The position numbers and the translations under genes are program-made. From Conexibacter woesei Iso977N (lineage in GTDB: Bacteria; Actinomycetota; Thermoleophilia; Solirubrobacterales; Solirubrobacteraceae): DNA of 64,000 nt. The DNA is taken from NCBI RefSeq assembly GCF_000424625.1, contig NZ_AUKG01000003.1:248001-312000 (forward strand), read 5' to 3'. Below, one piece after another: positions 29,338 through 50,162 of the stretch. The first letter of the stretch is position 1; the number at the start of each line of letters is the position of its first letter. The notes below the pieces were generated by a model. The model worked only from the letters and a program-made list of their open reading frames with translations. It did not search any database and was not told the DNA's origin.

Positions 29338-29380
29338 GCCTGCGCAGTATGAGGCATGGCCGTGCGGAACGCTTCAGCGT

Positions 29381-29397
29381 GTTCACGGTTTGTTCAC
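29381..29397 (-). promoter_or_regulatory. Pho-box-like direct repeat (GTTCAC x2, 11-base period)
   Basis: GTTCAC at 29381-29386 and again at 29392-29397, exactly 11 bases apart. It overlaps the end of the anti-sigma-like gene and lies about 45-60 bases upstream of the winged-helix gene. Actinobacterial PhoP boxes are 11-base direct repeats with a GTTCAC core; the assignment is inference. Confidence 0.45.
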
Positions 29398-30120: not shown

Positions 30121-30671
30121 CAGGACGCCTTCCATGCTGTGTGCTGCCTGCGGATCCGGCCGGCGAGGACGCGCAGGCCGCGCGACACGCTCGTGCGCGC
30201 GCCGGACGGCGTGATGTCCAGGCGCTCGGCGATCTCCGCGTAGGTCATGTCCTCCAGGACGCGCATCGCGACGGCGTCGCGCTGGTCGGGCGGCAGGTCC
30301 GCCATCCCGGCGGCGACCGCGCCGCGCAGCTCCTGGATCCCGGAGAGCTCCTCGATCCGCTCGATCTCGCGGTCGGTCAGCGCGCGCCGCTCGCGGCCGA
30401 GCAGGAGCGCGCCCCTGCGCCCGGACTCCTCGCGGCGCTCGTGGTCGCGCAGCAGCGAGCGCGCGATCGACCAGAGCCAGCCGGACAGCTCCTCGTCGCT
30501 GGAGCCGCGGTACTGCGCGCGGCGCTCCAGCACGACCGTGAACACGTCGGAGGTCAGGTCGGTCGCCAGCTCCGCGTCGTGGACGCGCCGCTGGAAGAAC
30601 ACCAACAACGACGCGGCCGACCTCCGGTAGAGCCTGAGGAAGTCATCCTCGGTGAGCGGCGGCGCGGTCAG
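30120..30671 (-). CDS. ECF-type RNA polymerase sigma factor
   Basis: A 183-residue sigma-70-family protein. Region 2: [19 protein letters not shown], then [15 protein letters not shown] and [20 protein letters not shown]. Region 4: [18 protein letters not shown], then [20 protein letters not shown]. No ATG, GTG or TTG stands in the right place. The best start is CTG at 30671, which overlaps the ftsH stop as CTGA; an initiation site inside ftsH is the alternative. The 3' end overlaps the anti-sigma-like gene by one base. It probably activates its own operon under envelope or protein stress (inference). Confidence 0.85.
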
Positions 30672-32696: not shown

Positions 32697-32774
32697 GTGA
32701 ACAGTTCGGGAACTCTGGTCGCCGTCGTGTGAACACCGGGACGGCCGCTCGTGGACCGGGCGGACATGTTCACC
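32697..32774. promoter_or_regulatory. Pho-box-like repeats between ftsH and the binding-protein gene
   Basis: GTGAAC at 32697-32702 and GGGAAC at 32708-32713 are 11 bases apart and continue as TCTGG, as at 33889-33905. A further GTGAAC (32729-32734) and an inverted GTTCACC (32768-32774) follow. The cluster sits in the divergent gap before 32818 and could serve either gene. Confidence 0.45.
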
Positions 32775-33835: not shown

Positions 33836-33936
33836 GTTCACCGCGCGGGGCCAGTCCCTGCCATCTGGCCTGAAAAGGGCCGATACTCGTGAACATAGCG
33901 AAAACTCTGGTTGCAGCCGCACTGCTCTGAGTTCAC
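33836..33936 (+). promoter_or_regulatory. Leader region of the PstS-like gene with Pho-box-like repeat
   Basis: The 239-base gap before the PstS-like gene contains GTGAAC at 33889-33894 and GAAAAC at 33900-33905, 11 bases apart. Single GTTCAC cores lie at 33836 and 33931. The rest of the gap shows nothing else I can name except a ribosome site (AGGGAG) before the ATG at 34074. Confidence 0.5.
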
Positions 33937-34073: not shown

Positions 34074-35309
34074 ATGAAGTTGCGTACTAAGAAGGTCAGC
34101 GTGCTGGCCTTGGCTGCTACGGCTGCGATGGCCCTCAGCGGCATCGGCGCCGGCTCCGCCCACGCCTCGTTCACGCCGTGTGCCGGCAGCAACATCGCCG
34201 GTGAGGGTTCGTCGTTGCAGAGGTCGGCTCAGACCGCTTGGACGGCGGGCTTCAGGACCTCGGTCTGTGCGACGCCGACCGTGACCTACACGGCCACGAG
34301 CTCGGGGAGGTGCATGGACAAGTGGGGCGCCAGCGGTGGCGCGCTGCAGACCGCCGTGAACTACTGCGGCACCGACGATGCGCCGACCTCGACGCAGGTC
34401 ACCAACATCAACACCGCGACGGGCGCAGGCGTCCTCAGCATCCCGGTGACGCAGGCGGCGATCGCGATCGTCGTCAACCCGCCGGCGGGCTGCACGATCA
34501 CCGAGATCACTCCGGCCAACCTGGAGAGGGTCTTCAACGGCACGACGACCGCGTGGTCCTCGATCGCGACCGGCGGCAGCTGCACCGGCACGATCGACCG
34601 CGTCGTCCGCACCGATTCGTCGGGCACGAGCTACCAGCTCAAGCACTACCTGTTCAACCAGAACAGCAGCGCGGTGTGTGGGACCAGGACGTGGGCCGAC
34701 CTGCAGGCTTCGGCGGACAACACCAACTGGCCGTCCGCGTGCAACAGGACCGGCGTGCACTACTCGGAGTCGGGCTGCCCGTCGGCCTGCGCGGGTGCCG
34801 GCACGGGCTCGGGCGGCGGCGACGAGGCCAAGACGGTCTCGGCGAAGCCCGGCACGATCGGCTACGTGGCCCTCTCGGACGCTCGTTCGATCTACGTTGC
34901 CGGTGGCAACTACAGGTGGATCGGCATCAGGATCCCGGCGGAGTCGGCGACGTACGATCCCTCGAGCAACGGCCTGTCGACGACGGTCGCCAACTCGAAC
35001 TGCACGACCGCCTCGAGGTCGTACGCCAGCGGCACGTTCCCGCTGGCCACGGCCAGCTGGTCGGGCGTCTACCTGACCGATCACGGCAGCGGCTACCCGA
35101 TCTGCACGCTGACGTGGGACCTGGCGACCAACAACTACGCGGCCGGCTGGGGCTCCCCGGCGGGCGGCAGGATCGCCAACACCGTGTTCGACTACCTGAA
35201 CTACACGATCAGCACGGCGGGTGCCACGGCCAACAACAACAAGGACTACCAGAGGCTGCCCACCGACGTCAGGACTGCGGCGCAGTCCGGCGTCAACGCC
35301 ATCGGCTAG
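34074..35309 (+). CDS. Secreted PstS-like phosphate-binding protein, Cys-rich
   Basis: A 411-residue exported protein. Signal peptide: MKLRTKKVSVLALAATAAMA, cleaved near AHA-SF. The fold is that of PstS-type binding proteins: IAGEGSSLQ at the N-terminus, [46 protein letters not shown] and a late KPGTIGYVALSDA. It has about a dozen cysteines, far more than usual for PstS, and no lipobox, so it may be a disulphide-stabilised, freely secreted protein. No pstCAB or phoU lies beside it. Arg is almost always AGG. A Pho-box-like repeat precedes it and a strong terminator follows. Confidence 0.8.
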   Translation: MKLRTKKVSVLALAATAAMALSGIGAGSAHASFTPCAGSNIAGEGSSLQRSAQTAWTAGFRTSVCATPTVTYTATSSGRCMDKWGASGGALQTAVNYCGTDDAPTSTQVTNINTATGAGVLSIPVTQAAIAIVVNPPAGCTITEITPANLERVFNGTTTAWSSIATGGSCTGTIDRVVRTDSSGTSYQLKHYLFNQNSSAVCGTRTWADLQASADNTNWPSACNRTGVHYSESGCPSACAGAGTGSGGGDEAKTVSAKPGTIGYVALSDARSIYVAGGNYRWIGIRIPAESATYDPSSNGLSTTVANSNCTTASRSYASGTFPLATASWSGVYLTDHGSGYPICTLTWDLATNNYAAGWGSPAGGRIANTVFDYLNYTISTAGATANNNKDYQRLPTDVRTAAQSGVNAIG

Positions 35310-36341: not shown

Positions 36342-36358
36342 GTGAACATATCGATAAC
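36342..36358 (+). promoter_or_regulatory. Pho-box-like repeat before the PKD/propeller gene
   Basis: GTGAAC at 36342-36347 and GATAAC at 36353-36358, 11 bases apart, followed by TCC. A possible -10 box TATGTT lies at 36386-36391 and the ATG is at 36460. Confidence 0.5.
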
Positions 36359-36459: not shown

Positions 36460-38730
36460 ATGCTGGACCTTCGCCGTACAGCGGCGCCCTCGCGCGCTGC
36501 GTGCGCGGCGGCCTTCGCCGCCGCCCTGATCATCATGTACGTGTTGCTCGCCGCGCCGGGCGCGCGCGCCGCCGGCGAGCTGGCCGCGTTCGGCCCGGTG
36601 GGCTTCGACGCGAGCGCCGGCGAGTTCGCGTTCGGCGGCCCGGTCGCGGTCGATCCGAGCGACGGCAACGACATCTACGTCGCAGACGTCTCCGACGCGT
36701 CGAAGACGCCGCGCGTGCGCAAGCTCTCCCCGACGGGTCAGGCGCTGGCCACGGTCGCGCCGCCGAACACGAACGCCGGCGGTGGGGCCGGGTACATCGC
36801 GGGCCTCGCGGTCGACCAGACCGAGCATCGCCTGTACGTGTTCATGGTGGCCAACGGCCCCGACGCGGCGAACCCCTCGCAGCCGGCGTCGATGTCGATC
36901 CTCGTCTACTCGACGACGCCGCAGTCCAACGCGCTGGTCGCGCCCGCGAACCTCCCGTCCGGCGTGCTGGTCGACTTCCGCACCGCGGGCGGCGTCGTCG
37001 ACTACCCGACCGGCATCGCGGTGGACCCCACGACGCACAAGGTCGGGGTCATCGGGATCGACGATCCGAACGCCATCGATCCGAACGGCGTCATCCAGTA
37101 CGTCACCGACGCGGGCGCGCTCTCCACGCCCCTCACCGGCCTCGGGACCGGCGTCGACCCGGACGGCAACGCGGTGCCGAACCCGCCCGGCATGGCGATC
37201 GGCCCCGACGGCGACATCTACGTGCCCGAGGGGCCGGACGCGGGCGACGGCACCGCGGCCCTCATCTACCGCATCCCGAAGGGCGGCGGCACGCCCAGGC
37301 TCATCGCCCAGGACTCGGTCGACAACAACCCGGCGATCAACCCGGCGATCCAGAACGGCAACAGCTACGGCGTCCCGATCGCGGTCTCGCCCGACGGCAC
37401 CTCCGTGTGGATCCCCGAGGGCGTGTCCGGATCGGGCATGGTCCGCGGCTTCTCGATCGCCAACGGCGACCAGCTCGCGGCCTACGGCGGCGGCACCGCG
37501 GGCGGCAGTTGCTACCTGCCCTTCCGCTTCATCCACCTGGGCATCGCCGTCGGGGCCGACGACCAGGTCATCGTCACCAGCCCCTACAACAACACCACGC
37601 CGGACCCCACGGATCGCACCGTCCACGTCTTCGGCTCCGGCGGCTCCGGCTGCCCCGTGCCGCAGGGCCTGTTCACGGTCGACGGCAGGGGCGACGGCTC
37701 GGTGACGGTCACCAAGGGCAAGAGCATCGTCCTCGACGCGTCGATGTCGGACCTGCGCGGCGGCGCGGCGGGCGAGGTCGACTGGGACCTCGACGGCTCC
37801 GGCCAGTTCGCCACGCACGTGACGGGCTCGGGCGGCGGCGCGGCGGCCCTGACGATCAACCACACCTACCTGAACGCGGGCGCCACGTTCAGGATCGGCG
37901 TCAAGATCCACATCCAGGGCAGCGTCTGGACCGAGCCGGTGTTCCACACGGTCACCGTCGCGGCGCCCAGGCCCATCGCCTCCTTCACGCCGTCGTCGCG
38001 CACGCCCGCGGCGGGTGGCACGGTCACGTTCGACGCCTCCGCGTCGATCGACTCGGCCGGGTCCGACAGCGGTGGCCCGACGCACACGCTCAAGACCTAC
38101 CACTGGGAGTTCGGCGATGGCGCGACGCAGGACGCGACGACGCCGACGGTGACGCACGCGTTCGCCAACGGGGGCACGGCCGCCGTGGCGCGGACGGTCA
38201 GGCTCGTCGTCACCTCGAGGGACGACGTCGCCAGCGACGCCTTCGCGCAGACGGTGACGGTGGCCGGCACGGCGCCGGCCAACGCCACCCCGAACCCGAC
38301 GCCGACCCCGGCGCCGAGGACGACCCCCATCCCGCCGTCCGGTGGCGGCACCGTGCCGACCACGCCGACGATCCCGAGCTCGGGCGTCTCCGGCTCGAGC
38401 GTCGACGCCAGGGGCAACGTGGCGCTCACGGTCAGCTGCCCGGCCGGCGGCGCGCGCTGCGTGGGCAGGGTCGTCCTGAAGGTCAGGGTCACGAAGACCG
38501 TCAGGGGCAGGAAGAAGGCCACGACCGTGACCATCGGGACGGTGTCGTTCACGGTCGAGGCGGGCAAGAGCAAGGCGGTCAAGCTCAGGCTGACCGCGAC
38601 GGGTCGCTCGTTGTTGAGGAAGCAGAAGAGGCTCAGCGTCAGCGCGGCGATCACGACCAGCGCCAACGGCAGGTCCAGCACCAGGACCAAGACGCTGGCG
38701 CTCAAGGCCGCGAGCAAGAAGAAGAAGTAG
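36460..38730 (+). CDS. Secreted beta-propeller/PKD-domain surface protein
   Basis: A 756-residue exported protein. The signal peptide contains AACAAAFAAALIIMYVLLAAPGARA. NHL/YVTN-like propeller repeats follow (GPVAVDPSDGNDIYVAD, GIAVDPTTHKVGVIG, GMAIGPDGDIYVPEG, PIAVSPDGTSVWIPEG). Two PKD-like domains come next (VDWDLDGSG and YHWEFGDGATQ), then a Pro/Thr linker and a basic C-terminus ending in KKKK. Start at ATG 36460, nine bases after AGGAGA; TTG at 36454 is too close. It probably sits in or on the cell envelope through the basic tail. Own terminator at 38749-38766. Confidence 0.85.
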   Translation: MLDLRRTAAPSRAACAAAFAAALIIMYVLLAAPGARAAGELAAFGPVGFDASAGEFAFGGPVAVDPSDGNDIYVADVSDASKTPRVRKLSPTGQALATVAPPNTNAGGGAGYIAGLAVDQTEHRLYVFMVANGPDAANPSQPASMSILVYSTTPQSNALVAPANLPSGVLVDFRTAGGVVDYPTGIAVDPTTHKVGVIGIDDPNAIDPNGVIQYVTDAGALSTPLTGLGTGVDPDGNAVPNPPGMAIGPDGDIYVPEGPDAGDGTAALIYRIPKGGGTPRLIAQDSVDNNPAINPAIQNGNSYGVPIAVSPDGTSVWIPEGVSGSGMVRGFSIANGDQLAAYGGGTAGGSCYLPFRFIHLGIAVGADDQVIVTSPYNNTTPDPTDRTVHVFGSGGSGCPVPQGLFTVDGRGDGSVTVTKGKSIVLDASMSDLRGGAAGEVDWDLDGSGQFATHVTGSGGGAAALTINHTYLNAGATFRIGVKIHIQGSVWTEPVFHTVTVAAPRPIASFTPSSRTPAAGGTVTFDASASIDSAGSDSGGPTHTLKTYHWEFGDGATQDATTPTVTHAFANGGTAAVARTVRLVVTSRDDVASDAFAQTVTVAGTAPANATPNPTPTPAPRTTPIPPSGGGTVPTTPTIPSSGVSGSSVDARGNVALTVSCPAGGARCVGRVVLKVRVTKTVRGRKKATTVTIGTVSFTVEAGKSKAVKLRLTATGRSLLRKQKRLSVSAAITTSANGRSSTRTKTLALKAASKKKK

Positions 38731-38784: not shown

Positions 38785-38829
38785 ACACACGTGTCCGCTC
38801 GCGGTCATCACGCGTACGGACACGTGTGT
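38785..38829. repeat. 13-bp inverted repeat with twin ACACGTGT sites
   Basis: Arm ACACACGTGTCCG (38785-38797) recurs inverted at 38817-38829 after 19 bases. Each arm contains the palindrome ACACGTGT; their centres are 33 bp apart, about three helical turns. It stands just upstream of the Pho-box-like repeat at 38839 and may be a dimer-of-dimers operator for the operon. Confidence 0.55.
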
Positions 38830-38838
38830 AGCCACTTT

Positions 38839-38855
38839 GTGAACAGAAGCATAAC
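38839..38855 (+). promoter_or_regulatory. Pho-box-like repeat before the five-gene surface operon
   Basis: GTGAAC at 38839-38844 and CATAAC at 38850-38855, 11 bases apart, followed by TCC. The first start codon of the operon (GTG 38935) is 80 bases downstream. Confidence 0.5.
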
Positions 38856-38934: not shown

Positions 38935-40923
38935 GTGGCCCTGACTCGTCTCATCCGCCACCCGCTTGCGCTGCTCGTCGTCGGAGCAGCGTTCGCGTGG
39001 CCCACAAGCGCCCTCGCGCTCATCGAACCGCCGGTCACGATCGACGGGCCCAGCGCCGACGTCCGCGACTTCGGCGGCGTCGCCCTGGCGCCCGACGGCA
39101 CCGGCGGCATCGCCTACATCAAGGTCACCGGCGGCGTCCCGCACGTCTTCGTCGTCCGCCGCCTGCACGGTGGCTGGACCCGGCCGGTGCGCGCCGACCT
39201 CCTGCCCTACGACGCGCAGCAGGTCGCGATCGCGGCCTCGAACAACGGGCGCCTGCTCGTGGTCTGGGTCAGCCAGATCGCGACGGTCCATGGGCAGATC
39301 CGGTACGCGCTGTACTCGGCCGAGCTCCCGGCCGGCGGCGCCGCGTTCGGCGCGCCGCTGGTCGTCGACCCCAACGTCGCGGCCGGCGCCGACGTCGACC
39401 CGTCGCTGGCCGGCACCGCGCCGGGGCAGGCGATCGTCGCCTATCGCGTGACGACCTACGACTTCGGGCCGACGAGCCCGTTCGACCCGACGGCCGTCCA
39501 GCTGCGCCCCAACGACGTGCTGGCCGACGTCCGCGTCGCCCGCTACCAGGGCACGCGGTGGTCCCGCCTGGGCGCGATCAACCGCAACGGCGACGCGTCG
39601 ATGCCGGCGCCGGACGTCGCCAACGCCCCGCGCGCCGGCCTCGCGGTGGATGGCAGCGCGGTGATCGCGTGGCAGGAGCGCGACCAGACCGGCATCGCGC
39701 GGATCTGGGCGCGCCGCGTCTTCGGCACCTCGCCGGCCCCGATCCAGCCGGCCAGCCCGTCGACCTGGCAGGGCAGCCCGGTCACCGACGACGCCGACGC
39801 GCTCGCGCTCGCGGTGACGCCGCTGGGCATGGCGCAGGTCGTCGCGCGCGTGTCCGGGACGAGCGACGACGCGCTCGGCGGCACGCGCGTGTTCGCCAAC
39901 CAGCTGCCGGTCAGCCTCGACAGGAACGCCGCGGTCTTCAGCGGGGCGACCGCCGTGGACGGCGGCCCGCAGGACCCGGTGATCGGCAGCCCCGCGGTGG
40001 CGGTCGCCGACGGCGGCCAGAACGGCAGCGCACGCGTCGCGTTCACCGCCGCCGGCGGCGTCCACCTGCCGGCCCTGGGCGCGGCGGGCGCGCTGCACGA
40101 TCCCCAGCCGTCGGCGCCCGCGGGCTCGGCGAGCGCCGACGCGCAGGTCGCGATCGACCCGGACGGCGGCACGATCGCGGCGTGGGAGACGACCGGCGCC
40201 GACGGCCTGCCCGCCGTCGCCCTGCGCCAGGAGCTGCCGTCGGGCGGCGTCCAGACCGGGGTCGTGGCCGGCAACGACGCCGGGGACGTCTCGCGCCTCA
40301 GCCTCGGCGGCGACGTCGGCGGCGACGCGATCGTCGGCTTCCTCCAGAGGACGGGCGCGGGCGCCGAGGTCGTCGCCGGCGGGATCACCGCCGCGCCCGC
40401 GAGCTTCGTCGTGACCGCGCCGGCCGGCTGGGTGCGTCCCGGCGCCGCACGCGTGACCTGGCAGCCCGCGCCGTCGACCTCTCAGAGGATCACCTACACC
40501 GTGCTGCTCGACGGGCGGCCGGTCGCGCAGGGCCTGTCGGTCCGCGCGCTGCGCCCGGCCGCGGTCTACCTCGGCAACGGCGTCCGCCACGTGCAGGTCG
40601 TCGGGACCGACGCGCAGGGCCAGGCGATCGCCAGCGATCCGGTCGACCTCAGGGTCGACGGGCGGCCGCCGACGGCCACCGCCAGGAACACGACCGGCCG
40701 CAGGTACGGCCGCCACTCGCTGGCCGTCGCGGTCGCCGACGCGGCCTCCGGCGTCATGGCCGCCAGGACGACCTGCCTGTTCGGCGACGGCAGCAGGCTG
40801 CAGAAGGGGCACCGGACGTTCCGCCACGAGTACCAGCGGGCGGGGCGCTACGTCGTCCGCGTCGTCACGCGCGACAGGGCCGGCAACCAGGCGACCGTGC
40901 GGCTGCGGGTGACGGTGCGATGA
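38935..40923 (+). CDS. Secreted repeat protein with PKD-like end (surface operon gene 1)
   Basis: A 662-residue exported protein. Signal peptide: LIRHPLALLVVGAAFAWPTSALA. The body is made of beta-rich repeats alternating property-of-data segments such as VALAPDGTGGIAYIKV, QVAIAASNNGRLLVVWVS and VAIDPDGGTIAAWET, as in sialidase/propeller-like folds. The C-terminus is PKD/Ig-like (RYVVRVVTRDRAGNQATVRL). GTG start; upstream frame extensions lack a signal peptide. The stop overlaps the next gene's ATG (ATGA). First gene of a five-gene operon of exported proteins. No catalytic motif seen; a structural or binding role is inferred. Confidence 0.8.
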   Translation: MALTRLIRHPLALLVVGAAFAWPTSALALIEPPVTIDGPSADVRDFGGVALAPDGTGGIAYIKVTGGVPHVFVVRRLHGGWTRPVRADLLPYDAQQVAIAASNNGRLLVVWVSQIATVHGQIRYALYSAELPAGGAAFGAPLVVDPNVAAGADVDPSLAGTAPGQAIVAYRVTTYDFGPTSPFDPTAVQLRPNDVLADVRVARYQGTRWSRLGAINRNGDASMPAPDVANAPRAGLAVDGSAVIAWQERDQTGIARIWARRVFGTSPAPIQPASPSTWQGSPVTDDADALALAVTPLGMAQVVARVSGTSDDALGGTRVFANQLPVSLDRNAAVFSGATAVDGGPQDPVIGSPAVAVADGGQNGSARVAFTAAGGVHLPALGAAGALHDPQPSAPAGSASADAQVAIDPDGGTIAAWETTGADGLPAVALRQELPSGGVQTGVVAGNDAGDVSRLSLGGDVGGDAIVGFLQRTGAGAEVVAGGITAAPASFVVTAPAGWVRPGAARVTWQPAPSTSQRITYTVLLDGRPVAQGLSVRALRPAAVYLGNGVRHVQVVGTDAQGQAIASDPVDLRVDGRPPTATARNTTGRRYGRHSLAVAVADAASGVMAARTTCLFGDGSRLQKGHRTFRHEYQRAGRYVVRVVTRDRAGNQATVRLRVTVR

Positions 40924-43088
40924 GCCGTAGGTGGACGACTACGATCGCGGCCGTCGCCGCGCTGGGCGCGCTCGCCGGCGCCGCCGGGCCGGCGGCCGCG
41001 GACTTCGGTGCGCCCACGCTCGTCAGCGTGTCGCCGCGCGAGCAGGCCGACGCGGTCGGGACGTCCGCGCTCTCGGCCGACAGCCGCTGGCTCGCGTACT
41101 CCGGCTCGCTCGACGGCGTCAGCGGCGTGTTCCGGCGCAACCTGCAGACCGGGGCGACCGACGTCGTCGCCGGCGGCGACGCCTACGCGAGGCCGGCGAT
41201 CGCCGACGCCCGGATGCCGTCGATCAGCGCCGACGGTCGCTACGTCAGCTTCAGCACGACGGCCGCGCTCGACACCGACGACGACACCAACGCGGTCGCC
41301 GACGTGTACGTGCGCGACATGGACGCGCCGGCGCCGCCGGTCGGCCTGCCCTGCTCGCCTGGCCCCGGGTGCGCCTTCGCGCTGGCGTCGGCGCACGACG
41401 GCGCGCCGTCCGGGCTCGTCTACGCCGCCCCCTCGGGCAGCGGGACCGCGGGGTCGCTCGCGGCGCCGCGCTCGGCGCTCAGCGCCGACGGCCGTCGCGT
41501 CGCGTTCGTCACGCAGAGCGGCTCGGACCTGGCCGGCGCCGACACGCCGGCGCTCCAGGTCGCGGTCCGGGATCTCGACACGCAGCGGACGACGCTCGTC
41601 AGTGCTCAGCGCGATCCGTCCATTGGTGCGATGACCACCGTACCGGTGACGGGCGGCGCCGTCACGCCGACCGCGGTCGAGGTCGGCGGCAACGGCCTGG
41701 CCGCACCCGTCGCCGTGGCGGCGTTGAGCGCCGACGGCACGACCGTCGCCTGGCTCGGCGCGAACATCGGCCTGCAGGCGCCGACGCTCCCGGACGAGAG
41801 GACCGACGATGCCAACGGCTACGACGAGCCGCTGTGGCGGCGCGTCGCCGACGGCCCGGCCGCGCCGATCCGGCGCGTCGTCGGCGCCGGCGACCCCGAG
41901 GCGCCCGGCTGCCCGCCGGGCGGCACGTTCGCGGACCCCGCCTGCGTCGGCCCGTACCCGGACCTCGCGTCGAACGGCGACGCGGGGAACGGCTACGTCG
42001 CCGGGTGGGTGACGCGCCCGGCGCAGTTCGACGCGCTGCCGTCGCTCAGCGCCGACGGCCGCACGGTCGCCCTGCTCGGCACGCCGCCGGTGCCGCCGCT
42101 GACCACCAAGACCGACATCGCCGACCTGTTCGTGGTCGACATGCGCGACGGCCTGGCGCGTCGCGACGCGGTCCGCCGGCTCACCCAGGACCTCCACTCG
42201 GGCGACGCGTTCAACGGCGTCTACGACGTCGGGATCGCGCCGGACGGACGGCGGATCGCGTTCTCGACCGCGCGGTCGACGTTCCCGCTGGCGCCGCCCT
42301 ACCTGACCGGCGGCGTGCCCGCGCAGAAGGGCCAGCAGGAGCTCTACCTCGTCGACCTCGGCGACAACACGCTGCGGCGTGTGAGCAGGACGGTCGACGG
42401 CGGCCCGTCGCTGCCTCCGGGCGTCACGAGGGCCGACAGCGACGGCGCCGCCTCGCCGTCGTTCGACGCGACCGGCCGGATGCTGGCGTTCGACTCGCCC
42501 GCACGCAACCTCGTGGCGGTCGACGCCAACGGCGCCAACGACGTGTTCCTGCTCACCGACGCCGCGCCGCCGCTCGGTGCGCCCGGCCAGAGCGTGATCT
42601 CGGCGCGCCCGCCGAACCCGGCGATCCCGCGCGCGTGGACGATGGCGCTGCGCGCGGTCGCGCAGAAGGATGGGACCGTCCGCCTCGACGCCGACGTCCC
42701 GGGCCCGGGCGTCCTGCGCGCGACCGTGCAGGCGACGGTGCCCGTCACCAGGCACGTGAGGGTCAGGGCGGCCCACGGCAGGCACCGGACGGTGACGCGG
42801 AGGGTGCTGGTCAGGCGCCAGGTCGCGGTCAGGTCGACGGTCGTCCGCGCCGCCGGGCTGTGGCGGCTCTCGATCAGGGTGACCAAGACCTACATGTCGT
42901 TGGTGAAGGGCAGGGCCGGGCTCGACGCCACGGCGAAGGTGACGTTCGCGGCTCCCGGTCGCGCGACCCTCAAGGACACGCTGGCGGTGAGGTTCCGAGT
43001 GGCGCAGACCAAGGTGACCAAGAAGAGCAAGGCCACCAACAAGAAGAGCAAGACCACCAAGAAGACGACCGCGAGGGCCAAGCGATGA
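40920..43088 (+). CDS. Secreted TolB/PD40-like propeller protein (surface operon gene 2)
   Basis: A 722-residue exported protein. The signal peptide is short (WTTTIAAVAALGALAGAAGPAAA). Repeats with the TolB/PD40 pattern follow: ALSADSRWLAYSGSLDGV, SISADGRYVSFSTTAALD, ALSADGRRVAFVTQSG, SLSADGRTVALLGT, GIAPDGRRIAFSTA and SFDATGRMLAFDS, which suggests a six-bladed propeller. The C-terminal 170 residues are Arg/Lys-rich and end with repeated KKSK/TKK. ATGA overlap with the gene before and the gene after. Possibly a scaffold that binds acidic wall polymers through the tail (inference). Confidence 0.82.
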   Translation: MSRRWTTTIAAVAALGALAGAAGPAAADFGAPTLVSVSPREQADAVGTSALSADSRWLAYSGSLDGVSGVFRRNLQTGATDVVAGGDAYARPAIADARMPSISADGRYVSFSTTAALDTDDDTNAVADVYVRDMDAPAPPVGLPCSPGPGCAFALASAHDGAPSGLVYAAPSGSGTAGSLAAPRSALSADGRRVAFVTQSGSDLAGADTPALQVAVRDLDTQRTTLVSAQRDPSIGAMTTVPVTGGAVTPTAVEVGGNGLAAPVAVAALSADGTTVAWLGANIGLQAPTLPDERTDDANGYDEPLWRRVADGPAAPIRRVVGAGDPEAPGCPPGGTFADPACVGPYPDLASNGDAGNGYVAGWVTRPAQFDALPSLSADGRTVALLGTPPVPPLTTKTDIADLFVVDMRDGLARRDAVRRLTQDLHSGDAFNGVYDVGIAPDGRRIAFSTARSTFPLAPPYLTGGVPAQKGQQELYLVDLGDNTLRRVSRTVDGGPSLPPGVTRADSDGAASPSFDATGRMLAFDSPARNLVAVDANGANDVFLLTDAAPPLGAPGQSVISARPPNPAIPRAWTMALRAVAQKDGTVRLDADVPGPGVLRATVQATVPVTRHVRVRAAHGRHRTVTRRVLVRRQVAVRSTVVRAAGLWRLSIRVTKTYMSLVKGRAGLDATAKVTFAAPGRATLKDTLAVRFRVAQTKVTKKSKATNKKSKTTKKTTARAKR

Positions 43089-44809
43089 GCCGCCTCCTGG
43101 GCCTGCTCGCCGCGCTCGCGCTCGGCGCCGTTTGCGCCGCTCCGGCGACAGCGGACGAATGGCACAGCGAGCAGCCGGTGCCCACCGGCAGCAGCGTCCC
43201 CGTCGCGGTCGGCAAGGTGTATGACATCAAGTTCTGGGCGCCGAACCGCGGCGCGCTGATCACGGCCGACGGCCTCTGGGCCTACGACGGCACCGGCTGG
43301 CACCGGCTCGCCACGGTCTGCGGCGGCACCGGCGGCCGCATCGCGTGGGCCGGCCCGCTCGACTTCTGGACGATCAGCGATCAGGTCGTCGGCCAGGCCG
43401 GGCTCGACAGGGGCGCCGCGCAGCGCCGCTCGCTCTGCCACATCGTCAACGGCCAGGTCGTCGCGTCCTACGCCGAGCCGATCGGCACCGCGAGGTCCTA
43501 CCTGCCGATGAACGCGGCCGCGTGCCTGGCTCCGGACGACTGCTGGTTCGGCGGCGAGCGGCTGCCGGGGAGCGTCAACACCGGCGCCTTCCACCTGCAC
43601 TGGAACGGCAACGCGCTGCAGCCGTTCCCGTCGCTGACCATGCACGACGCGGTTCCGGACCCGGACCGCGCGGTGGCCGACTACGCCGTGCACCAGGGCG
43701 CGCTGTACGAGAGCGTGTCGTACGCGGGCAACGCGATCGGCAACGAGCCCGAGGACCAGCCCTACCTCCTGCACCAGGTCCAGGACGGCGACCCGCCGAC
43801 GTTCACCTCGCTGTTCACGACGACGCCGATCGACTACGGCGCCGACGACCCTGCGCACCTCGCCGGCCTGCAGCTGTCGAGCGACGGCGCGCAGCTGTGG
43901 GCGGCGGCCGGCGCGCTCTCGGCCAGGGACGGCAGCGGAACACCGGTCAACGTGCTGCTGCTCGGTCCCGACGGCTTCGCGCCCTTGACGCTGAGCGACG
44001 CCGGCGACGCGCTTGCGACCGGCACCAGGATCGCCGCGATCGCGGCCGAGCCGGGCACCGACGACGCATGGGTCGCCTACGTGCCGGCGCGGGAGATCAA
44101 CAGCGACGACCCGCCCGCGCGGCTCGTCCGCGTCCATGCCGACGGGACCGTCGACAGCACGACGACGCTGCCGGGCGCGGGCGATGGCATCGCGCGCAAG
44201 GACCAGGCCGACCGGCTCGCCTGCCCGGCGCCCGGGCAGTGCTGGATGGCCACGGCGGACGGCTGGCTGTTCCACCTCGGGGGCGACCTCCCGCGTGACG
44301 ACGAGCCCGCGATGCACCGGCTGATCACCTACCGGCCGTCGGACAACGCGACGATCAAGCTCGCCAACGACTCGATCCCCGACGACGACTCCGGCATCGC
44401 GCCGCCGGTCTTCAACGAGCCGCCGCCGCTCACGTCCGGCCCGCCGGCCCCGACGCCGAAGCGGGCCAGGGCCAGGAAGCTGATCACGAACCTCAGGCGG
44501 CGCGTGATCCACCGCACGACGCTGGAGCTGACGTTCACGTTGACCGCGAAGGCCCACGTCCAGCTGCTCGCCAAGCGCAGGAGCAAGGTCGTCGCACGCA
44601 CCAGGAAGACGACGCTGGCCAAGGGCAGGCACCGGCTGCGGCTGAAGCTCAGCGTCAAGCACTGGCCGACGAAGCTCGACCTCAGGGTCACGGCGTACAC
44701 GAGGGCGAGGGGCGGGGACGACACGTCGAGCACGCCGTCGCACGATCCGTCGGTCGCCGACGATGACCCGGACGCCGGCGAGGTCACGATCGCGAGCGTG
44801 AGGCGTTGA
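43085..44809 (+). CDS. Secreted propeller-like protein with basic tail (surface operon gene 3)
   Basis: A 574-residue exported protein. Signal peptide: LLGLLAALALGAVCAAPATA. The body has repeats of the kind CW-x-x (ACLAPDDCWFGGE, LACPAPGQCWMATADGW) and WAP/WAAAG segments that look like Ycf48/BNR-type propeller blades. From about residue 455 a Pro stretch is followed by a basic Ig-like domain (TLELTFTLTAKAHVQLLAKR) and an Asp/Ser-rich end. Coupled by ATGA to the gene before and by TTGA to the gene after. No enzyme motif seen. Confidence 0.78.
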   Translation: MSRLLGLLAALALGAVCAAPATADEWHSEQPVPTGSSVPVAVGKVYDIKFWAPNRGALITADGLWAYDGTGWHRLATVCGGTGGRIAWAGPLDFWTISDQVVGQAGLDRGAAQRRSLCHIVNGQVVASYAEPIGTARSYLPMNAAACLAPDDCWFGGERLPGSVNTGAFHLHWNGNALQPFPSLTMHDAVPDPDRAVADYAVHQGALYESVSYAGNAIGNEPEDQPYLLHQVQDGDPPTFTSLFTTTPIDYGADDPAHLAGLQLSSDGAQLWAAAGALSARDGSGTPVNVLLLGPDGFAPLTLSDAGDALATGTRIAAIAAEPGTDDAWVAYVPAREINSDDPPARLVRVHADGTVDSTTTLPGAGDGIARKDQADRLACPAPGQCWMATADGWLFHLGGDLPRDDEPAMHRLITYRPSDNATIKLANDSIPDDDSGIAPPVFNEPPPLTSGPPAPTPKRARARKLITNLRRRVIHRTTLELTFTLTAKAHVQLLAKRRSKVVARTRKTTLAKGRHRLRLKLSVKHWPTKLDLRVTAYTRARGGDDTSSTPSHDPSVADDDPDAGEVTIASVRR

Positions 44810-47800
44810 GTCGCCCGACACCGGTCGCACGCCGCCGGCGGTTCGCGGCGGCGCTGGTGCTGCTGGCCGCCGCGGCGGCGCTCCTGCTGCTCAACCGTGT
44901 CGCATCGGGGTCCGGGGCCGAGGCGCCCGCCGGCTCGGTCGCGCAGCCGTCGCTGGGCGTCATCGACGCGGGCGGCACGATCATCGGCGCGTCGCCGGGC
45001 GAGGCGGCGGGCGAGATCTGGTCGCTCGGCAACGGCCGGATCCTGCGGCACACCGACGCCGACGGCTGGACCGCGGTCGACGCGCCGGTCGACGCCGACG
45101 GCCAGCCGCTGAAGACGCTGACGCCCGCGAGCGGCCCGCAGGCCGGCCGCAGCACCGACGACGGCGCGGTCGCGTTCCTGGCCAACAGCATGCTGGTGGT
45201 GCGCGACCCGGGTGGGCGCTTCCACGCGGCGCCGGACCCGTCGGTCCTGCCGGACGGCGGCACGCTGCCGATGACCGGGACGCCGGGCACGACCGGGGCG
45301 CCGGGGACGACCGGGGCGCCGGGGACCACCGGGACGCCGGGGACGACCGGCACGCCGGGGACGACCGGGACGCCGGGCACGACCGGGACGCCCGGCACGA
45401 CGTCTGCGCCGCCGGCCACCGCGACGGCGCCGCTGCACGCCGGCGAGAAGCTCTACGACAGGCCGTTGCTGGCGATCGACGAGCACGACGGCCACGCGGG
45501 TGCGTTCGTCGTGCCCACGGCCGGCGACGACGGCGTGCAGGACGCGGTCCTGCACTTCGACGGAACCGCCTGGACGCGCGAGGCGATCTGCCTCGGCACG
45601 GCGCCGGCGTGCGACGCGCCGCCGACGGCGTTCACGGTCGCGGCGGTGGACGCCGCGGGCGCGGGCCACGCGTGGCTGCTGGCGACCGGCACCACCACGA
45701 CGGCCGGGATGGTCCTGCTGCACCGCGACACGTCGGGGACCGATCCCGTCTGGCGGCCCGTGTCGCTCGGCGCGTCACCGTTCGCGACCAAGACGCCGGT
45801 GGTGGGCAGGACCGCGGTGCAGGTCGGCCTCCCGGCGCACGGTCAGCCGCTGACGGCGACGACGCAGGGCGTCTGGGCCGATGCGTCGGTCAGGTCGTCG
45901 ACCGGCGGGACGTCGAGGGACGCGACGTTGTTCTACGACGAGCCGGCCGCGAAGGTCGCGGCGAGCTGGTGCGACGTCACCGGCGACGACGGCTCGACGT
46001 TGTGCGACAGGTCGCTCGGCACCAACCTGCCGAGGGGCGACGCGCGCAGCTTCGCGTGGACCAGCGGCGGGCCCTACGGCACGCGCCTCGTCACGGGCTT
46101 GGACCAGGGCGCGCTGCTGCGCTTCGACGGGACCTCGTGGTCGCGCGTTCCCACCTCGGGCCGCGGCGTCGGCGCCGATCGCGGGGCCGCGTTCACGGCC
46201 ACCGACGACGGCTGGCTGGGTGGGCCCGGCGGGCCTGTCCGCTTCGGTCCGAGCGCCGAGGCCGACCAGCTGCGGAGCTGGCCCGTCCCGTTCCGCCATC
46301 CGCTGACGGCGATCACGGCCGAGCCCGGCCGGCCGGTCGGCGGGATCGACGCGCAGGCGCTGGCGGTCGGCGACCAGGGCGAGGTCGCGCGCTACACGCC
46401 CGGCCAGGGCTGGCTGCCCGAGCCGCTCCTGACGGCCACCGGCAAGCGCGCGACCCCGCGCCTGCGCGGTGTCGCGTGGCCGACCGATGAGCGTGCCTAC
46501 GCGGTCGGCGACGGCGCCGAGATGTGGCTGTGGCGGAAGGAGACCGGGCTCTGGGAGTCCGATCCGGCCAAGCCGCCGAACCTCGCGCTGGCGAACTTCA
46601 CCGGGATCGCGTTCGACCCCGGGAACGCCGATCGCGGCTACGCGATCGGCAAGCAGGGCGTGCTGCTGCGCTACGACCGGACGTGGACGCAGGAGCCGCT
46701 GCCCGACGGGCTCGGCGACGCGAACTTCACCGCGATCGCGTTCGCGGGCCACGAGGCGATCGTCACCTACAAGATCCCGTACCTCAACAGCCGCCAGGAG
46801 CGGAGCTACCGCGGCGGGATCGTCGTCAACGACGGCTCCGGCTGGCGCATCGACGACGGCATCACGTCCGCGCTCGTCGACCCCGACGGCCCAGGGGGCG
46901 CGGCCGGGTCCAACGTGCCGGAGCGCGTCGCCGGGCTCGCCGATGGCAGCGCGGTCGTCGCGACGCTCGACGGGCACGTCGCCGAGCGCGACGGCGCGGG
47001 CGGCGCGTGGCACGACTCCGGGCTCGTCGCCGCGGGCTACCCGGCGGCGGTCACGGCGTTCCACGAGGACGGCGTCGTGCGGGCGGCCGTGGCCGTCGAC
47101 CTCGACGACAACTTCGCCGCCGGCGAGAACGCGATCGACTTCGACGAGCTGCTGAACCCCGCGCCGGCGGGCCAGGCGCCGGTGCTCACCGACCCCTACG
47201 GGATCCCGGGCGACGGCTACGTGCTGCGCCAGACCGCACACGGCTGGCACGACGAGCAGCATCTGTACTCGTCGCGCTCGATCCCGAGCGACACCACGAA
47301 CTTCGACCTGCCCGAGCGTCCGGACGCCGTCCTGGCGTTCCTGACCGACCCGTTCGGCCGTGGCGGCTGGGCCGTCGGCGGCGACGTCCAGGTCCAGAGC
47401 GCGAGCGTCGTCCGCTACCCGGACGACGGTCAGGCCGCGCCCGGCGCCGCGACCTCGACGGTCGCGGCCGACCCGAGCGCGGTGGCGGAGTTCGCGATCG
47501 GCGGGGGCGCCGGCTGCCTGAGCGCGTGCGCGGACCTCCAGCCGGTCGGCGCGGGGCCGTGGCGCTGGCTGCCCGCCGCGGTCGGCAGGGCGACGCAGAT
47601 CGCGGGCGTGCGCGCGTTCCTCGACACCGGGCCGGGGACGGCGAGGTCCTCGGAGGTCGACGACTTCGGCCACGAGCAGGAGGCCGCGGCGCGGCGGCTG
47701 ACGATGGCGGCGGGCACGCTGCCGGTCTACGCGGCGCCCTCCGAGAACGACCTCGACGACGACGGGTCGCTGGCCACGTTCGTGAGCGCGTTCTCGTCCT

Positions 47801-49323
47801 ACGGGGCGCTGCCCGCCGCCGTGTCGGCGACCCAGGCCTACTACGCGTTCGACACGACGGGGGCCGGAGGCAACGTCCGCGTGATCGTGCTCGACACGTC
47901 GGGCAACAACCTCGGCGACGCGCAGCGCTGCTGGCTCGCGAACGAGCTCTCCGGCGCCGCGGCTGCGGCGACCCCGGCGATCGTCGTCGGCAACCGCTCG
48001 ATCCAGAGCAGCGCCGACGCGACGACCGTGTCGGCGACCCTCGTCACCGGCACGCCGCCGGGCGGCTGCACCGTGGACGGCCCGGAGGCGGGCGCGTCGG
48101 CGTACTTCTACGAGGCGACCGGCGCCAACGTCACCGGCACGGTCACGGCGGGCGCCGACGCGATCCCGTCGGTCGGGACCGGCTCGCTGGGGTACATCGT
48201 GCCGCCGCCCGCGGGGGTCACCAACCAGCCGGCCAACAGCGGCTTCCTGCTCGTGCAGGTGGACGCCAACGGCGCCGACGTCGGCGGTGCGCTCAACCGC
48301 AAGGCCGTCGCCGTGCGGCTGATCCCGAACATCGGGGAGCTGGCGGTCGACTCCACCGACGGCACGGTGCTGCGCCGCAGCCAGGTCGCGCTGTTCCAGG
48401 GCCTCGCGCGACGGCCGCGTGCCGGGCTCGGCTGCCAGGACGCGCCGTCGTGCACGATCGTCCCGGACCCGTACGTGCCGATCCCGACCGATTGCGTCGG
48501 CCAGGGCTGCGACACGATCGTGCCGCCCGAGTACACCTTCACGTCGTCGGATCCGTCGGTCGCGAACTTCGTGGCGCGCGACCCGGCGTCGACCAACCCG
48601 CGGCGCGCGCTGTTCGACGCGCAGGGCAGGCCGATCCCGGACAACGACAGCGGGCTGTTGTGCGCGTACAACGACGGCACCACCACGATCACGCTGACCG
48701 CGGGAGGGCTCTCCTACTCGCAGAAGGTGACGGTGCTGGCGGGCAGCGTGCAGCGACCGTGCGGGACCGTGCCGGCGAACCGCACCAGCACGGTGCCGAC
48801 GGTGCCCGAGGACAACAACGCCCTCGACCCCGAGCCGCTGCCGGCCGAAGCGACGCCGCCCACCGGCGGCGCCGGGGCGCTCCCGCCGCCGCCCGTCCCC
48901 GCGCCCGTCAGGGTCGTCAAGGCCCCGCCGCACAGGCCCGTCAAGGCCGTGATCCCCGCCGCGTTCGTCGCGCCGTTCCTGCCCGTCTCCTCCGGGCTGA
49001 CGCAGGTCGTCGCGACGCCGCCGCCTCCGCCGCCGACCGCGGCGCGGCCGGCGCCGCCGTCGGGCACCTCGAGCGCCCAGGTGTCGCAGACCGCGGTCGC
49101 GCCCGAGCGCCAGCGCGAGGAGGAGCACGCGGTCGACACCGTCGCGAACATGGCGCGCTACGAGCCCGACGCCCCGCTGCCGCGCTACGTCAGCCAGGGC
49201 GGCGCGCTCGTGCTGCTGCTGCTCGCCGGGCTCGCGCTCGCGGGCGCCCGGCCGCGCCCGCGGCGATCCTACGCCTACAACTACTCCGACGACCACCGCA
49301 GAACCCCGAGGACCCCCCGATGA
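44806..49323 (+). CDS. Giant surface protein: propeller, collagen-like tract, phosphoesterase-like domain (gene 4)
   Basis: A 1505-residue protein, membrane-anchored at both ends: helix 1 at about 12-29 (FAAALVLLAAAAALLLL) and helix 2 near the C-terminus (GALVLLLLAGLALAGA) with a basic tail. A collagen-like Gly-X-Y tract lies at 158-199. Propeller-like repeats follow (for example DRGYAIGKQGVLLRYD). The part about 930-1160 resembles calcineurin-type phosphoesterases (VRVIVLDTSGNNLGDAQRCWLANEL), but the metal motifs GNHD and GHxP appear as SENDL and GNRSI, so it is probably inactive. A Pro-rich region precedes helix 2. TTG start overlapping the stop of gene 3 (TTGA). Confidence 0.8.
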   Translation: MSRPTPVARRRRFAAALVLLAAAAALLLLNRVASGSGAEAPAGSVAQPSLGVIDAGGTIIGASPGEAAGEIWSLGNGRILRHTDADGWTAVDAPVDADGQPLKTLTPASGPQAGRSTDDGAVAFLANSMLVVRDPGGRFHAAPDPSVLPDGGTLPMTGTPGTTGAPGTTGAPGTTGTPGTTGTPGTTGTPGTTGTPGTTSAPPATATAPLHAGEKLYDRPLLAIDEHDGHAGAFVVPTAGDDGVQDAVLHFDGTAWTREAICLGTAPACDAPPTAFTVAAVDAAGAGHAWLLATGTTTTAGMVLLHRDTSGTDPVWRPVSLGASPFATKTPVVGRTAVQVGLPAHGQPLTATTQGVWADASVRSSTGGTSRDATLFYDEPAAKVAASWCDVTGDDGSTLCDRSLGTNLPRGDARSFAWTSGGPYGTRLVTGLDQGALLRFDGTSWSRVPTSGRGVGADRGAAFTATDDGWLGGPGGPVRFGPSAEADQLRSWPVPFRHPLTAITAEPGRPVGGIDAQALAVGDQGEVARYTPGQGWLPEPLLTATGKRATPRLRGVAWPTDERAYAVGDGAEMWLWRKETGLWESDPAKPPNLALANFTGIAFDPGNADRGYAIGKQGVLLRYDRTWTQEPLPDGLGDANFTAIAFAGHEAIVTYKIPYLNSRQERSYRGGIVVNDGSGWRIDDGITSALVDPDGPGGAAGSNVPERVAGLADGSAVVATLDGHVAERDGAGGAWHDSGLVAAGYPAAVTAFHEDGVVRAAVAVDLDDNFAAGENAIDFDELLNPAPAGQAPVLTDPYGIPGDGYVLRQTAHGWHDEQHLYSSRSIPSDTTNFDLPERPDAVLAFLTDPFGRGGWAVGGDVQVQSASVVRYPDDGQAAPGAATSTVAADPSAVAEFAIGGGAGCLSACADLQPVGAGPWRWLPAAVGRATQIAGVRAFLDTGPGTARSSEVDDFGHEQEAAARRLTMAAGTLPVYAAPSENDLDDDGSLATFVSAFSSYGALPAAVSATQAYYAFDTTGAGGNVRVIVLDTSGNNLGDAQRCWLANELSGAAAAATPAIVVGNRSIQSSADATTVSATLVTGTPPGGCTVDGPEAGASAYFYEATGANVTGTVTAGADAIPSVGTGSLGYIVPPPAGVTNQPANSGFLLVQVDANGADVGGALNRKAVAVRLIPNIGELAVDSTDGTVLRRSQVALFQGLARRPRAGLGCQDAPSCTIVPDPYVPIPTDCVGQGCDTIVPPEYTFTSSDPSVANFVARDPASTNPRRALFDAQGRPIPDNDSGLLCAYNDGTTTITLTAGGLSYSQKVTVLAGSVQRPCGTVPANRTSTVPTVPEDNNALDPEPLPAEATPPTGGAGALPPPPVPAPVRVVKAPPHRPVKAVIPAAFVAPFLPVSSGLTQVVATPPPPPPTAARPAPPSGTSSAQVSQTAVAPERQREEEHAVDTVANMARYEPDAPLPRYVSQGGALVLLLLAGLALAGARPRPRRSYAYNYSDDHRRTPRTPR
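45277..45402 (+). repeat. Seven 18-bp repeats encoding a collagen-like tract
   Basis: Seven tandem 18-base units encode 14 Gly-X-Y triplets alternating GTP or GAP with GTT (residues 158-199 of the 1505-residue protein). The units differ at synonymous sites, so the tract is not a very recent expansion. Length may vary between strains. Confidence 0.85.
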
Positions 49324-50162
49324 CGACCGCCACGCACGACCCGCTCACCCGCGCCATGGCCGCCGCCGCGCTGGCGGTCGCCCTGCTCGCCCTGTTCATC
49401 TCGTTGAGCACCAACTCGCCCGCGAGGACGGCGCCGCCGCAGGCGCAGGCCGCGAAGGCCAGGGCCAAGGCCAGGAAGAAGACCAAGTCCATGCCCATGC
49501 CTTCCCTGAGCCCCAAGCCCTACGGCGTCCTGCGGCTCTCGAAGGCCAAGAGGTTCCCGGCGTCGGTGATCCCGAAGGTCGCCGCCGCCAGGGCCGCCGA
49601 CACGCTCGGCGGCGCCAGGCGCCAGGACCTCGCGCTCAACTGCCCGGCCGACACCGCCGACCTCGGCACCTGGTGCCTGCAGACCTCCACCTACACGGTG
49701 CCCAACGACCAGGTCGGGACCAACGACTTCATGTACGCCGCGCGCGAGTGCGTCAAGGAGGGCGGCTGGTTGCCGTCCGCCGCGCAGCTGATCGGCGCGG
49801 CGCCGCGGATCAAGCTGCAGTCGACGATCGACGACAACGAGTCGACCGCCGCGATCGACATCGGCCCGGGCGACGGGCTCAAGGACGCGCGCGAGATGTC
49901 GTCCTCGCTGTTCACGACGACCGCGGGCGACTCGGCCGCGGGCAGCGAGGGCGTCAGCACCGGCTCGCTCGGCGACCCGCGCCAGGCCGAGCCCAACCCG
50001 GTCCCGCAGCCCGCCGATCCCAAGCCCAGCTCGCTGGACTACGTGACGGTCTACGACAACCGCGACCTCGGTGGCTTCGCCGGCGGCGAGCCCGTCGGCA
50101 GGGCGGAGAGGTTCCGCTGCGCGTTCAACAAGACGCAGGGCGCCGTAGCCGCCGAGGACTGA
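49320..50162 (+). CDS. Membrane-anchored secreted protein (surface operon gene 5)
   Basis: A 280-residue protein with one N-terminal membrane segment (AMAAAALAVALLALFISLST), then a very basic stretch (KARAKARKKTK) and an extracytoplasmic domain with a few Cys (NCPADTADLGTWCLQT, ARECVKEGGWLPSAAQL). The WLPSAAQL block recalls the sulfatase-modifying/C-type-lectin-like fold, but the match is weak and I give no function. ATG overlaps the stop of the giant protein gene (ATGA). Last gene of the operon; the next gene is convergent, 16 bases away. Confidence 0.75.
   Translation: MTTATHDPLTRAMAAAALAVALLALFISLSTNSPARTAPPQAQAAKARAKARKKTKSMPMPSLSPKPYGVLRLSKAKRFPASVIPKVAAARAADTLGGARRQDLALNCPADTADLGTWCLQTSTYTVPNDQVGTNDFMYAARECVKEGGWLPSAAQLIGAAPRIKLQSTIDDNESTAAIDIGPGDGLKDAREMSSSLFTTTAGDSAAGSEGVSTGSLGDPRQAEPNPVPQPADPKPSSLDYVTVYDNRDLGGFAGGEPVGRAERFRCAFNKTQGAVAAED

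What the first reader, a model, noticed from the sequence alone, without database searches (positions are those of the whole stretch)
38935..50162. Five-gene, fully overlapping operon of exported propeller-type proteins
Five consecutive genes (662, 722, 574, 1505 and 280 residues) are joined by ATGA or TTGA overlaps and all encode exported or membrane-anchored proteins made of propeller-like or beta repeats with basic tails. No enzyme, transporter or secretion gene is included. Strict coupling suggests fixed stoichiometry, as for a surface complex or sheath. I know of no named system with this composition.
Basis: partly seen in the sequence, partly recalled or inferred. Interest (0 to 1): 0.72.

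Follow-up and report, generated by a model that had tools for sequence, protein, structure and literature searches.

The report
Phosphate-starvation surface-protein gene cluster
The five overlapping genes are part of a larger gene set, found in one family of soil actinobacteria, that makes exported surface proteins, a phosphate-binding protein and its own membrane protease, and that carries the DNA switches cells use to turn genes on when phosphate is scarce.

Summary
The five genes are real, in order, joined by 4-base overlaps (ATGA, ATGA, TTGA, ATGA), and all are predicted to be exported or membrane-anchored. They stay together in relatives: the giant protein D is in 35 of 146 genomes of the family (Solirubrobacteraceae: Conexibacter, Solirubrobacter, Patulibacter, Svornostia), almost always beside A, B, C and often E.

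In relatives a PstS-type phosphate-binding protein and a dedicated FtsH protease lie between B and C; in the window both lie just upstream (34074-35309, 30668-32662). The pstSCAB-phoU operon closely follows the cluster in several genera. The cluster carries PHO-box-like sites (11-bp direct repeats of GTTCAC). In a scan of the whole 5.7-Mb genome the same motif precedes pst, Pit and purple-acid-phosphatase genes and lies at or near phoU, its response regulator and polyphosphate kinase. The only perfect match lies in the cluster, which is also the genome's densest 7.5-kb patch of sites.

Best reading: a Pho-regulon, phosphate-starvation envelope module that probably captures phosphate outside the cell. 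Regulon membership is well supported; the capture mechanism is inferred. The 'sheath with fixed stoichiometry' reading is only partly supported. I found no described system with this composition.

The parts
38935..40923 (+). gene A, 662 aa, signal peptide, C-terminal PKD/Ig-like domain; most of the N-terminal region has no assigned family
   Evidence: homologs beside D in most complete loci
40920..43088 (+). gene B, 722 aa, exported PD40/TolB-type beta-propeller with Lys-rich C-terminal tail
43085..44809 (+). gene C, 574 aa, exported, no Pfam family; found in 9 of 199 class genomes, all in the same family and all D-positive
44806..49323 (+). gene D, 1505 aa, N-terminal TM/signal, multidomain ectodomain, C-terminal TM plus Arg-rich tail; TTG start overlapping the stop of C
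45274..45417 (+). D: collagen-like (GTTGTPG) low-complexity repeat, D residues 157-204; this region is poorly conserved across relatives
46258..47430 (+). D: 7-bladed beta-propeller (model residues 263-653)
   Evidence: AlphaFold2 pLDDT 82.8; VIA Z 27.9, rmsd 2.8, 283 aligned to virginiamycin B lyase 2z2p; Ycf48 TMt about 0.70
47455..48207 (+). D: alpha/beta domain resembling a metallophosphoesterase, with the motif positions I assign lacking metal ligands in 28 homologs (probable pseudoenzyme; the homology is weakly supported)
   Evidence: motif columns; weak matches; no Pfam metallophosphoesterase hit
48229..48786 (+). D: conserved C-terminal beta domain (weak Ig-like/S-layer-like matches)
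49189..49245 (+). D: C-terminal TM helix (D residues 1462-1480), followed by an Arg-rich tail kept in most full-length homologs
49320..50162 (+). gene E, 280 aa, N-terminal TM/signal segment plus a highly conserved Cys-containing domain (C-type-lectin/FGE-like pattern by eye only)
   Evidence: (poor model)
34074..35309 (+). PstS-type phosphate-binding protein (PBP_like_2), Sec signal peptide (start corrected to 34074), no lipobox seen
   Evidence: partner of the cluster in relatives
30668..32662 (-). dedicated FtsH paralog (AAA + M41, 664 aa, two TMs; Walker A, HExxH and Asp ligand motifs intact)
36460..38730 (+). U0: exported NHL/PKD protein, present in the Conexibacter/MAG-type clusters
28852..29337 (-). 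winged-helix DNA-binding protein downstream of the perfect PHO-box-like site; homologs near some clusters
30120..30602 (-). ECF-type sigma factor next to FtsH; homologs near two Conexibacter clusters
29381..29397 (+). PHO-box-like site GTTCACGGTTTGTTCAC, the only zero-mismatch match in the genome
   Evidence: PWM score 22.9, best in window
32697..32713 (-). PHO-box-like site GTTCCCGAACTGTTCAC upstream of FtsH
33889..33905 (-). PHO-box-like site GTTTTCGCTATGTTCAC upstream of the PstS-type gene (2 mismatches)
36342..36358 (-). PHO-box-like site GTTATCGATATGTTCAC upstream of U0 (2 mismatches)
38825..38844 (-). PHO-box-like site GTTCACAAAGTGGCTACACA, about 90-110 bp upstream of gene A (weak second half-site)
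   Evidence: score 14.8, third best in the 64-kb window

Best explanation
The five genes are the exported core of a Pho-regulon (phosphate-starvation) envelope module. When phosphate is low, a PhoP/PhoB-type response regulator binds the 11-bp direct repeats upstream of FtsH, the PstS-type protein, U0 and A-E and switches the set on. The exported proteins A, B, C, the two-TM giant D and the anchored protein E form or decorate a surface assembly. The secreted PstS-type protein binds inorganic phosphate in the wall space and hands it on to the membrane PstSCAB transporter. The dedicated FtsH, whose catalytic domains face the cytosol, turns over or quality-controls the membrane-anchored members, most likely D through its short Arg-rich tail. 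Shown by sequence: gene set, conservation, co-localisation, PstS ligand motifs, intact FtsH motifs, PHO-box-like sites. Inferred: regulation itself, physical assembly, phosphate hand-over, FtsH substrate.
For: Conserved set A, B, PstS-type PBP, FtsH, C, D, E across genera. FtsH: a subfamily separate from the other FtsH classes of these genomes (25-row clade, 100/100). It was located close to D in 14 D-positive genomes (three of three clusters in G219, two of two in G220), present but unlinked in G310 and G312, missed in G276 where the contig ends, and not seen at comparable score in six of seven D-negative genomes; motifs intact in 20 of 20. The PBP profile hits PstS structures at E=2.6e-25 with the GASF, GSG, D and RxDxSGTT motif positions aligned. 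pst genes downstream of the cluster in Solirubrobacter, Patulibacter, G071, G233 and YX3bin6, with a GDPD gene between in two Solirubrobacter loci. PHO-box-like TTCAC-N6-TTCAC: 21 sites at period 11 in cluster intergenic DNA against a mean of 2.4 at other periods, 10 at pst genes, 5 in other intergenic DNA, 16 in 649 kb of coding DNA. Own genome: 58 matches against 7 for the reversed pattern. The motif precedes three pstS-type genes, a DUF47-PiT operon, the pst-linked response regulator and a purple acid phosphatase, and lies within 100 bp of polyphosphate kinase. The single perfect match and the densest 7.5-kb patch (4 sites; 7 of 2000 random placements do as well anywhere) are in this cluster. 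PHO boxes are 11-nt direct repeats with GTTCACC in Streptomyces coelicolor (PMC4415409).
Against: No expression data. The site just upstream of A has a degenerate second half. An out-of-sample look upstream of A in nine other clusters gave one strong case, several moderate ones and about three with nothing, with uncertain gene starts. PHO-box-like sites and loci from related genomes are not independent. Some of the 58 genome hits are background, including four in one 12.5-kb stretch of unrelated genes. pst adjacency could be inherited synteny. No structure or assay shows that A-E touch phosphate or each other. Several paralogous cassettes in one termite-gut MAG lack PBP, FtsH and C on short contigs.
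Confidence: 0.55

Rival explanations
1. Pho-regulated envelope remodelling: under phosphate starvation the cell builds a protein coat (A-E) to replace phosphate-rich wall polymers; the PstS-type protein is a coat component or sensor rather than a scavenger.
For: Same regulatory evidence. Ectodomains made of propeller, PKD/Ig-like and collagen-like parts, basic tails suited to anionic wall polymers. Replacement of teichoic by teichuronic acids is a known Pho response (PMC4415409).
Against: No S-layer homology domain or sortase motif was found by the searches run. The PstS ligand motifs are retained, and the PBP travels with the cluster.
Confidence: 0.22
2. Assembly and quality-control module: the propeller proteins act as extracytoplasmic chaperones or assembly factors and FtsH as protease for other phosphate-starvation membrane proteins.
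For: D's propeller resembles the photosystem assembly factor Ycf48 (Pfam; TMt about 0.70). A dedicated active FtsH accompanies the cluster.
Against: Resemblance to Ycf48 is no closer than to many 7-bladed propellers. pst is present in relatives without the cluster as far as tested only indirectly. The size and repetitive nature of D fit a surface structure as well.
Confidence: 0.12
3. One reading: a structural surface complex or sheath with fixed stoichiometry, unrelated to phosphate.
For: All five are exported or anchored, co-localised and often translationally coupled.
Against: Phosphate-binding partner, pst neighbours and PHO-box-like sites. Order and overlaps vary.
Confidence: 0.08
4. Conserved neighbourhood without joint function: unrelated exported genes kept together by descent.
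For: Restricted to one family, so shared ancestry is limited.
Against: Order has been reshuffled several times while the set is kept. Genomes with two or three clusters carry a dedicated FtsH beside each.
Confidence: 0.03

Closest known systems
Pho regulon / PHO boxes of Actinobacteria (PhoR-PhoP; S. coelicolor GTTCACC repeats, PMC4415409)
   Same: 11-bp direct repeats of GTTCAC; the motif marks pst, PiT and purple-acid-phosphatase genes in this genome
   Different: None of the five exported proteins is a known Pho-regulon member to my knowledge; regulation not measured
PstS / extracellular PstS-DING proteins (PMC7922408)
   Same: The PBP shares the PstS fold family and ligand motifs; DING proteins of Pseudomonas are proposed to scavenge phosphate outside the cell, and PstS occurs on surface appendages there
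   Different: Here the PBP has a Sec signal without a visible lipobox, often an extra C-terminal basic Ig-like tail, and comes with five exported proteins and an FtsH
FtsH (AAA+ M41 membrane protease)
   Same: Domain order, two TMs, Walker A, HExxH and Asp ligand
   Different: A separate clade beside the housekeeping FtsH, tied to this cluster
Calcineurin-like metallophosphoesterases / purple acid phosphatases
   Same: Strand-helix pattern and a YAFD..G.VRVIVLD..Q..WL..L signature in one domain of D
   Different: Metal-ligand motifs absent at the assigned positions in 28 homologs; no Pfam hit
Ycf48/BNR and virginiamycin-lyase-type 7-bladed propellers
   Same: Fold of D residues 485-875
   Different: 10-15% identity, no functional inference

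Membership tests
Pho regulon | PHO box (11-bp direct repeats) in the promoter | tested here: met
   one perfect site and further partial sites in the cluster; the motif checked against pst, PiT and phosphatase genes of the same genome
Pho regulon | Binding by the PhoP/PhoB-type regulator and induction at low phosphate | not testable with these tools
   Needs transcriptomics and DNA-binding assays
PstS phosphate-binding protein (window 34074-35309) | PBP fold of the PstS family | tested here: met
   PF12849; profile hit to PstS structures E=2.6e-25
PstS phosphate-binding protein (window 34074-35309) | Phosphate-ligand motif positions | tested here: met
   GASF, GSG, D and RxDxSGTT align with PstS in the family profile; the window copy reads GSSL, SSG, D, RTDSSGT, so the first motif is altered
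PstS phosphate-binding protein (window 34074-35309) | Gene in a pstSCAB operon and lipid anchor | tested here: not met
   Lies in the exported cluster, not in pst; signal peptide without an evident lipobox
FtsH / M41 (window 30668-32662) | AAA + M41 with Walker A, HExxH and Asp ligand, N-terminal TMs | tested here: met
Metallophosphoesterase (D domain) | Metal-ligand motifs (GD, GNHD/E, H, GHxH) | tested here: not met
   Motifs lost at the assigned positions in 28 homologs
Metallophosphoesterase (D domain) | Fold | tested here: inconclusive
   Weak sequence matches; structure searches were filled by propeller matches
PSII assembly factor Ycf48 | Single-domain Ycf48 protein of a photosynthetic organism | tested here: not met
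   One propeller inside a 1505-aa multidomain protein; NCBIfam Ycf48 score 19.6 against cut-off 326
S-layer / sheath | S-layer anchoring domain or self-assembly | tested here: inconclusive
   No S-layer Pfam hit in A-E; weak match (E=0.025) of D's last domain to an S-layer protein structure; assembly not testable here

The most novel reading that the evidence does not exclude
A previously undescribed phosphate-starvation surface machine of Solirubrobacteraceae: an extracellular complex of propeller proteins, a giant two-TM protein with a dead phosphatase-like domain and a secreted PstS-type binder that captures phosphate (or phosphate esters or minerals), maintained by a private FtsH protease.
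Probability: 0.4. Interest if true: 0.8.

Novelty: new variant of a known kind. Interest (0 to 1): 0.62.

Why it matters
Solirubrobacteraceae are widespread in soils and little is known of their surface biology. If the reading holds, these bacteria answer phosphate scarcity with a large exported protein assembly and a private membrane protease, beyond the known transporter and phosphatases. It gives five proteins without assigned function a testable condition (low phosphate), a regulator, a partner set and a marker gene, and shows a PstS relative and an FtsH paralog recruited into a new module.

Tried and rejected
(1) Fold of E: AlphaFold2 on 17 sequences gave pLDDT 52, and neither Pfam nor PDB profiles gave a match; the C-type-lectin/FGE-like pattern is by eye only. 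(2) Metallophosphoesterase homology by HMM-HMM comparison with 30 Metallophos-family ORFs of related genomes: only short weak matches (E about 1e-4 to 2e-3 for three single sequences), none with the pooled alignment. (3) Foldseek/VIA with the D model: lists filled by propellers, so other domains remain untested. (4) Out-of-sample PHO-box look upstream of A in nine further clusters: mixed, gene starts uncertain. (5) The fourth group of genome PHO-box-like hits (C2:1.357-1.369 Mb) lies among polyamine-transport and other genes and looks like background. (6) Literature searches for a described system found none. (8) Overlap as evidence of stoichiometry: rejected, overlaps are common here and not conserved in all relatives.

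Full report
Observation. The five ORFs lie at the stated coordinates with 4-base overlaps, and codon-usage gene calling recovers them, with D called 17 codons shorter. All start with a hydrophobic signal or TM segment; D has a second TM near its C-terminus followed by an Arg-rich tail. Pfam supports a PD40 propeller in B, PKD in A and a BNR/Ycf48 stretch plus collagen-like repeat in D; C and E have no family. D residues 223-1327 fold with mean pLDDT 82.8, and residues 485-875 match 7-bladed propellers at Z up to 27.9. Thus 'all propellers with basic tails' is an over-statement, but the core observation stands.

Conservation. Protein C occurs in 9 of 199 genomes of the class, all in the same family; the D core in 35 of 146 genomes of the family; E in 2 of 396 phylum genomes besides two weak partial matches. 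The nine C-positive genomes all carry D. Named relatives are Conexibacter, Solirubrobacter, Patulibacter and Svornostia. Loci around D show A, B, C, D and often E together. Order varies: A>B>PBP>FtsH>C>D>E in Solirubrobacter and some Conexibacter; PBP>B>C>D>E in Patulibacter with A reversed in two; A>B>C>D>PBP in Svornostia; E>A>B>C>D>U0>PBP in some MAGs; flipped blocks elsewhere. Exact 4-bp overlaps are kept in 14/22 (A>B), 10/17 (B>C), 10/26 (C>D) and 13/17 (D>E) pairs.

Extra members. In the A>B>PBP>FtsH>C>D>E arrangement two further genes sit between B and C. One is a PBP_like_2 protein whose profile hits PstS structures (E=2.6e-25) with the phosphate-ligand motifs aligned; the window copy is at 34074-35309. 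The other is an FtsH-type AAA/M41 protease (window 30668-32662). These cluster FtsHs form a supported clade apart from the other FtsH classes of the same genomes, with Walker A, HExxH and Asp motifs intact in 20 of 20. M41 hits of this class lie near D in 14 D-positive genomes tested, including three for the three clusters of G219 and two for those of G220. In G310 and G312 the gene is present but unlinked, and in G276 the contig ends. Six of seven D-negative genomes have no hit of comparable score, and the seventh (G047) has an outlying relative.

Phosphate link. A pst operon (PBP_like_2, two permeases, ATPase, PhoU, response regulator; Pfam) follows the cluster in Solirubrobacter, Patulibacter, G071, G233 and YX3bin6 loci. 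A PHO-box-like repeat TTCAC-N6-TTCAC (11-bp period) is enriched in intergenic DNA of the cluster: 21 sites at <=1 mismatch against a mean of 2.4 at nine other periods; 10 in pst upstream regions; 5 in a similar length of other intergenic DNA; 16 in 649 kb of coding DNA. The difference to other intergenic DNA is 3.7-fold (P=0.004, sites treated as independent, which they are not fully). In the window's own genome the 17-base pattern has 58 matches at <=2 mismatches against 7 for its reversed control; the only perfect match is window 29381. Tandem or single matches precede three pstS-type genes, a DUF47-PiT phosphate transporter operon and a purple acid phosphatase; others lie at the phoU/response-regulator genes and within 100 bp of polyphosphate kinase. 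The cluster has four sites within 7 kb, the densest such patch; 7 of 2000 random placements reach that anywhere in the genome. A weight matrix trained only on pst sites of relatives ranks window 29381, 32694 and 38825 first to third in the 64-kb window, the last lying upstream of A. The expected PHO box is a pair of 11-nt units, GTTCACC-like in Streptomyces (PMC4415409).

D's second domain. Residues 884-1134 carry a metallophosphoesterase-like signature (YAFD..G.VRVIVLD..Q..WL..L; GHxHxYER position read as ASAYxYER) with metal-ligand motifs missing in all 28 homologs. Sequence support is weak, so I treat 'pseudo-phosphatase' as a plausible guess.

Mechanism. I take the set as a phosphate-starvation envelope module. 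Sequence evidence gives the set, its conservation, the PstS-type binder, an intact protease and PHO-box-like sites. Regulation, assembly on the surface, phosphate capture with hand-over to Pst, and FtsH turnover of D are inference. Extracellular PstS/DING proteins of Pseudomonas are a precedent for scavenging outside the cell and for PstS on surface appendages (PMC7922408). I hold regulon membership at about 0.85 and the capture mechanism at about 0.5.

Novelty. No paper found describes such a cluster (the library lacks most subscription papers). It is a new kind of content within a known kind of response, so I rate it a new variant of a known kind.

Noticed in passing
G274 contigs (L049, L074-L079; same record as L080, L081, L088-L090, L106, L115): One termite-gut Solirubrobacterales MAG has eight D-family matches on separate contigs; several short cassettes read A-B-D or B-D without C, PBP or FtsH. 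Looks like a paralog expansion.
   Followed up: partly
L094, L108: Two records titled Bifidobacterium breve MAG carry the cluster at 63-72% GC and group with Solirubrobacteraceae; the titles look mislabelled.
   Followed up: no
window 45274-45417: Collagen-like GTTGTPG repeat in D; the stretch around it is poorly conserved among homologs.
   Followed up: partly
window 28852-30602: Winged-helix protein and ECF sigma factor next to FtsH, with the genome's only perfect PHO-box-like site 44 bp upstream of the winged-helix gene; similar genes lie near two Conexibacter clusters.
   Followed up: partly
window 32869-33834: U3, 321 aa, weak TctC-type binding-protein similarity, between FtsH and the PstS-type gene; homologs near a few other clusters (L086, L090, L091).
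   Followed up: no
window 35406-36173: U1, an exported 255-aa protein on the opposite strand inside the cluster, with no Pfam match and no homolog in the other loci.
   Followed up: no
G000:C2:462500-487000 (L214, L215): The genome holds several pst-type gene sets in one 20-kb region together with a PiT phosphate transporter and many PHO-box-like sites.
   Followed up: partly
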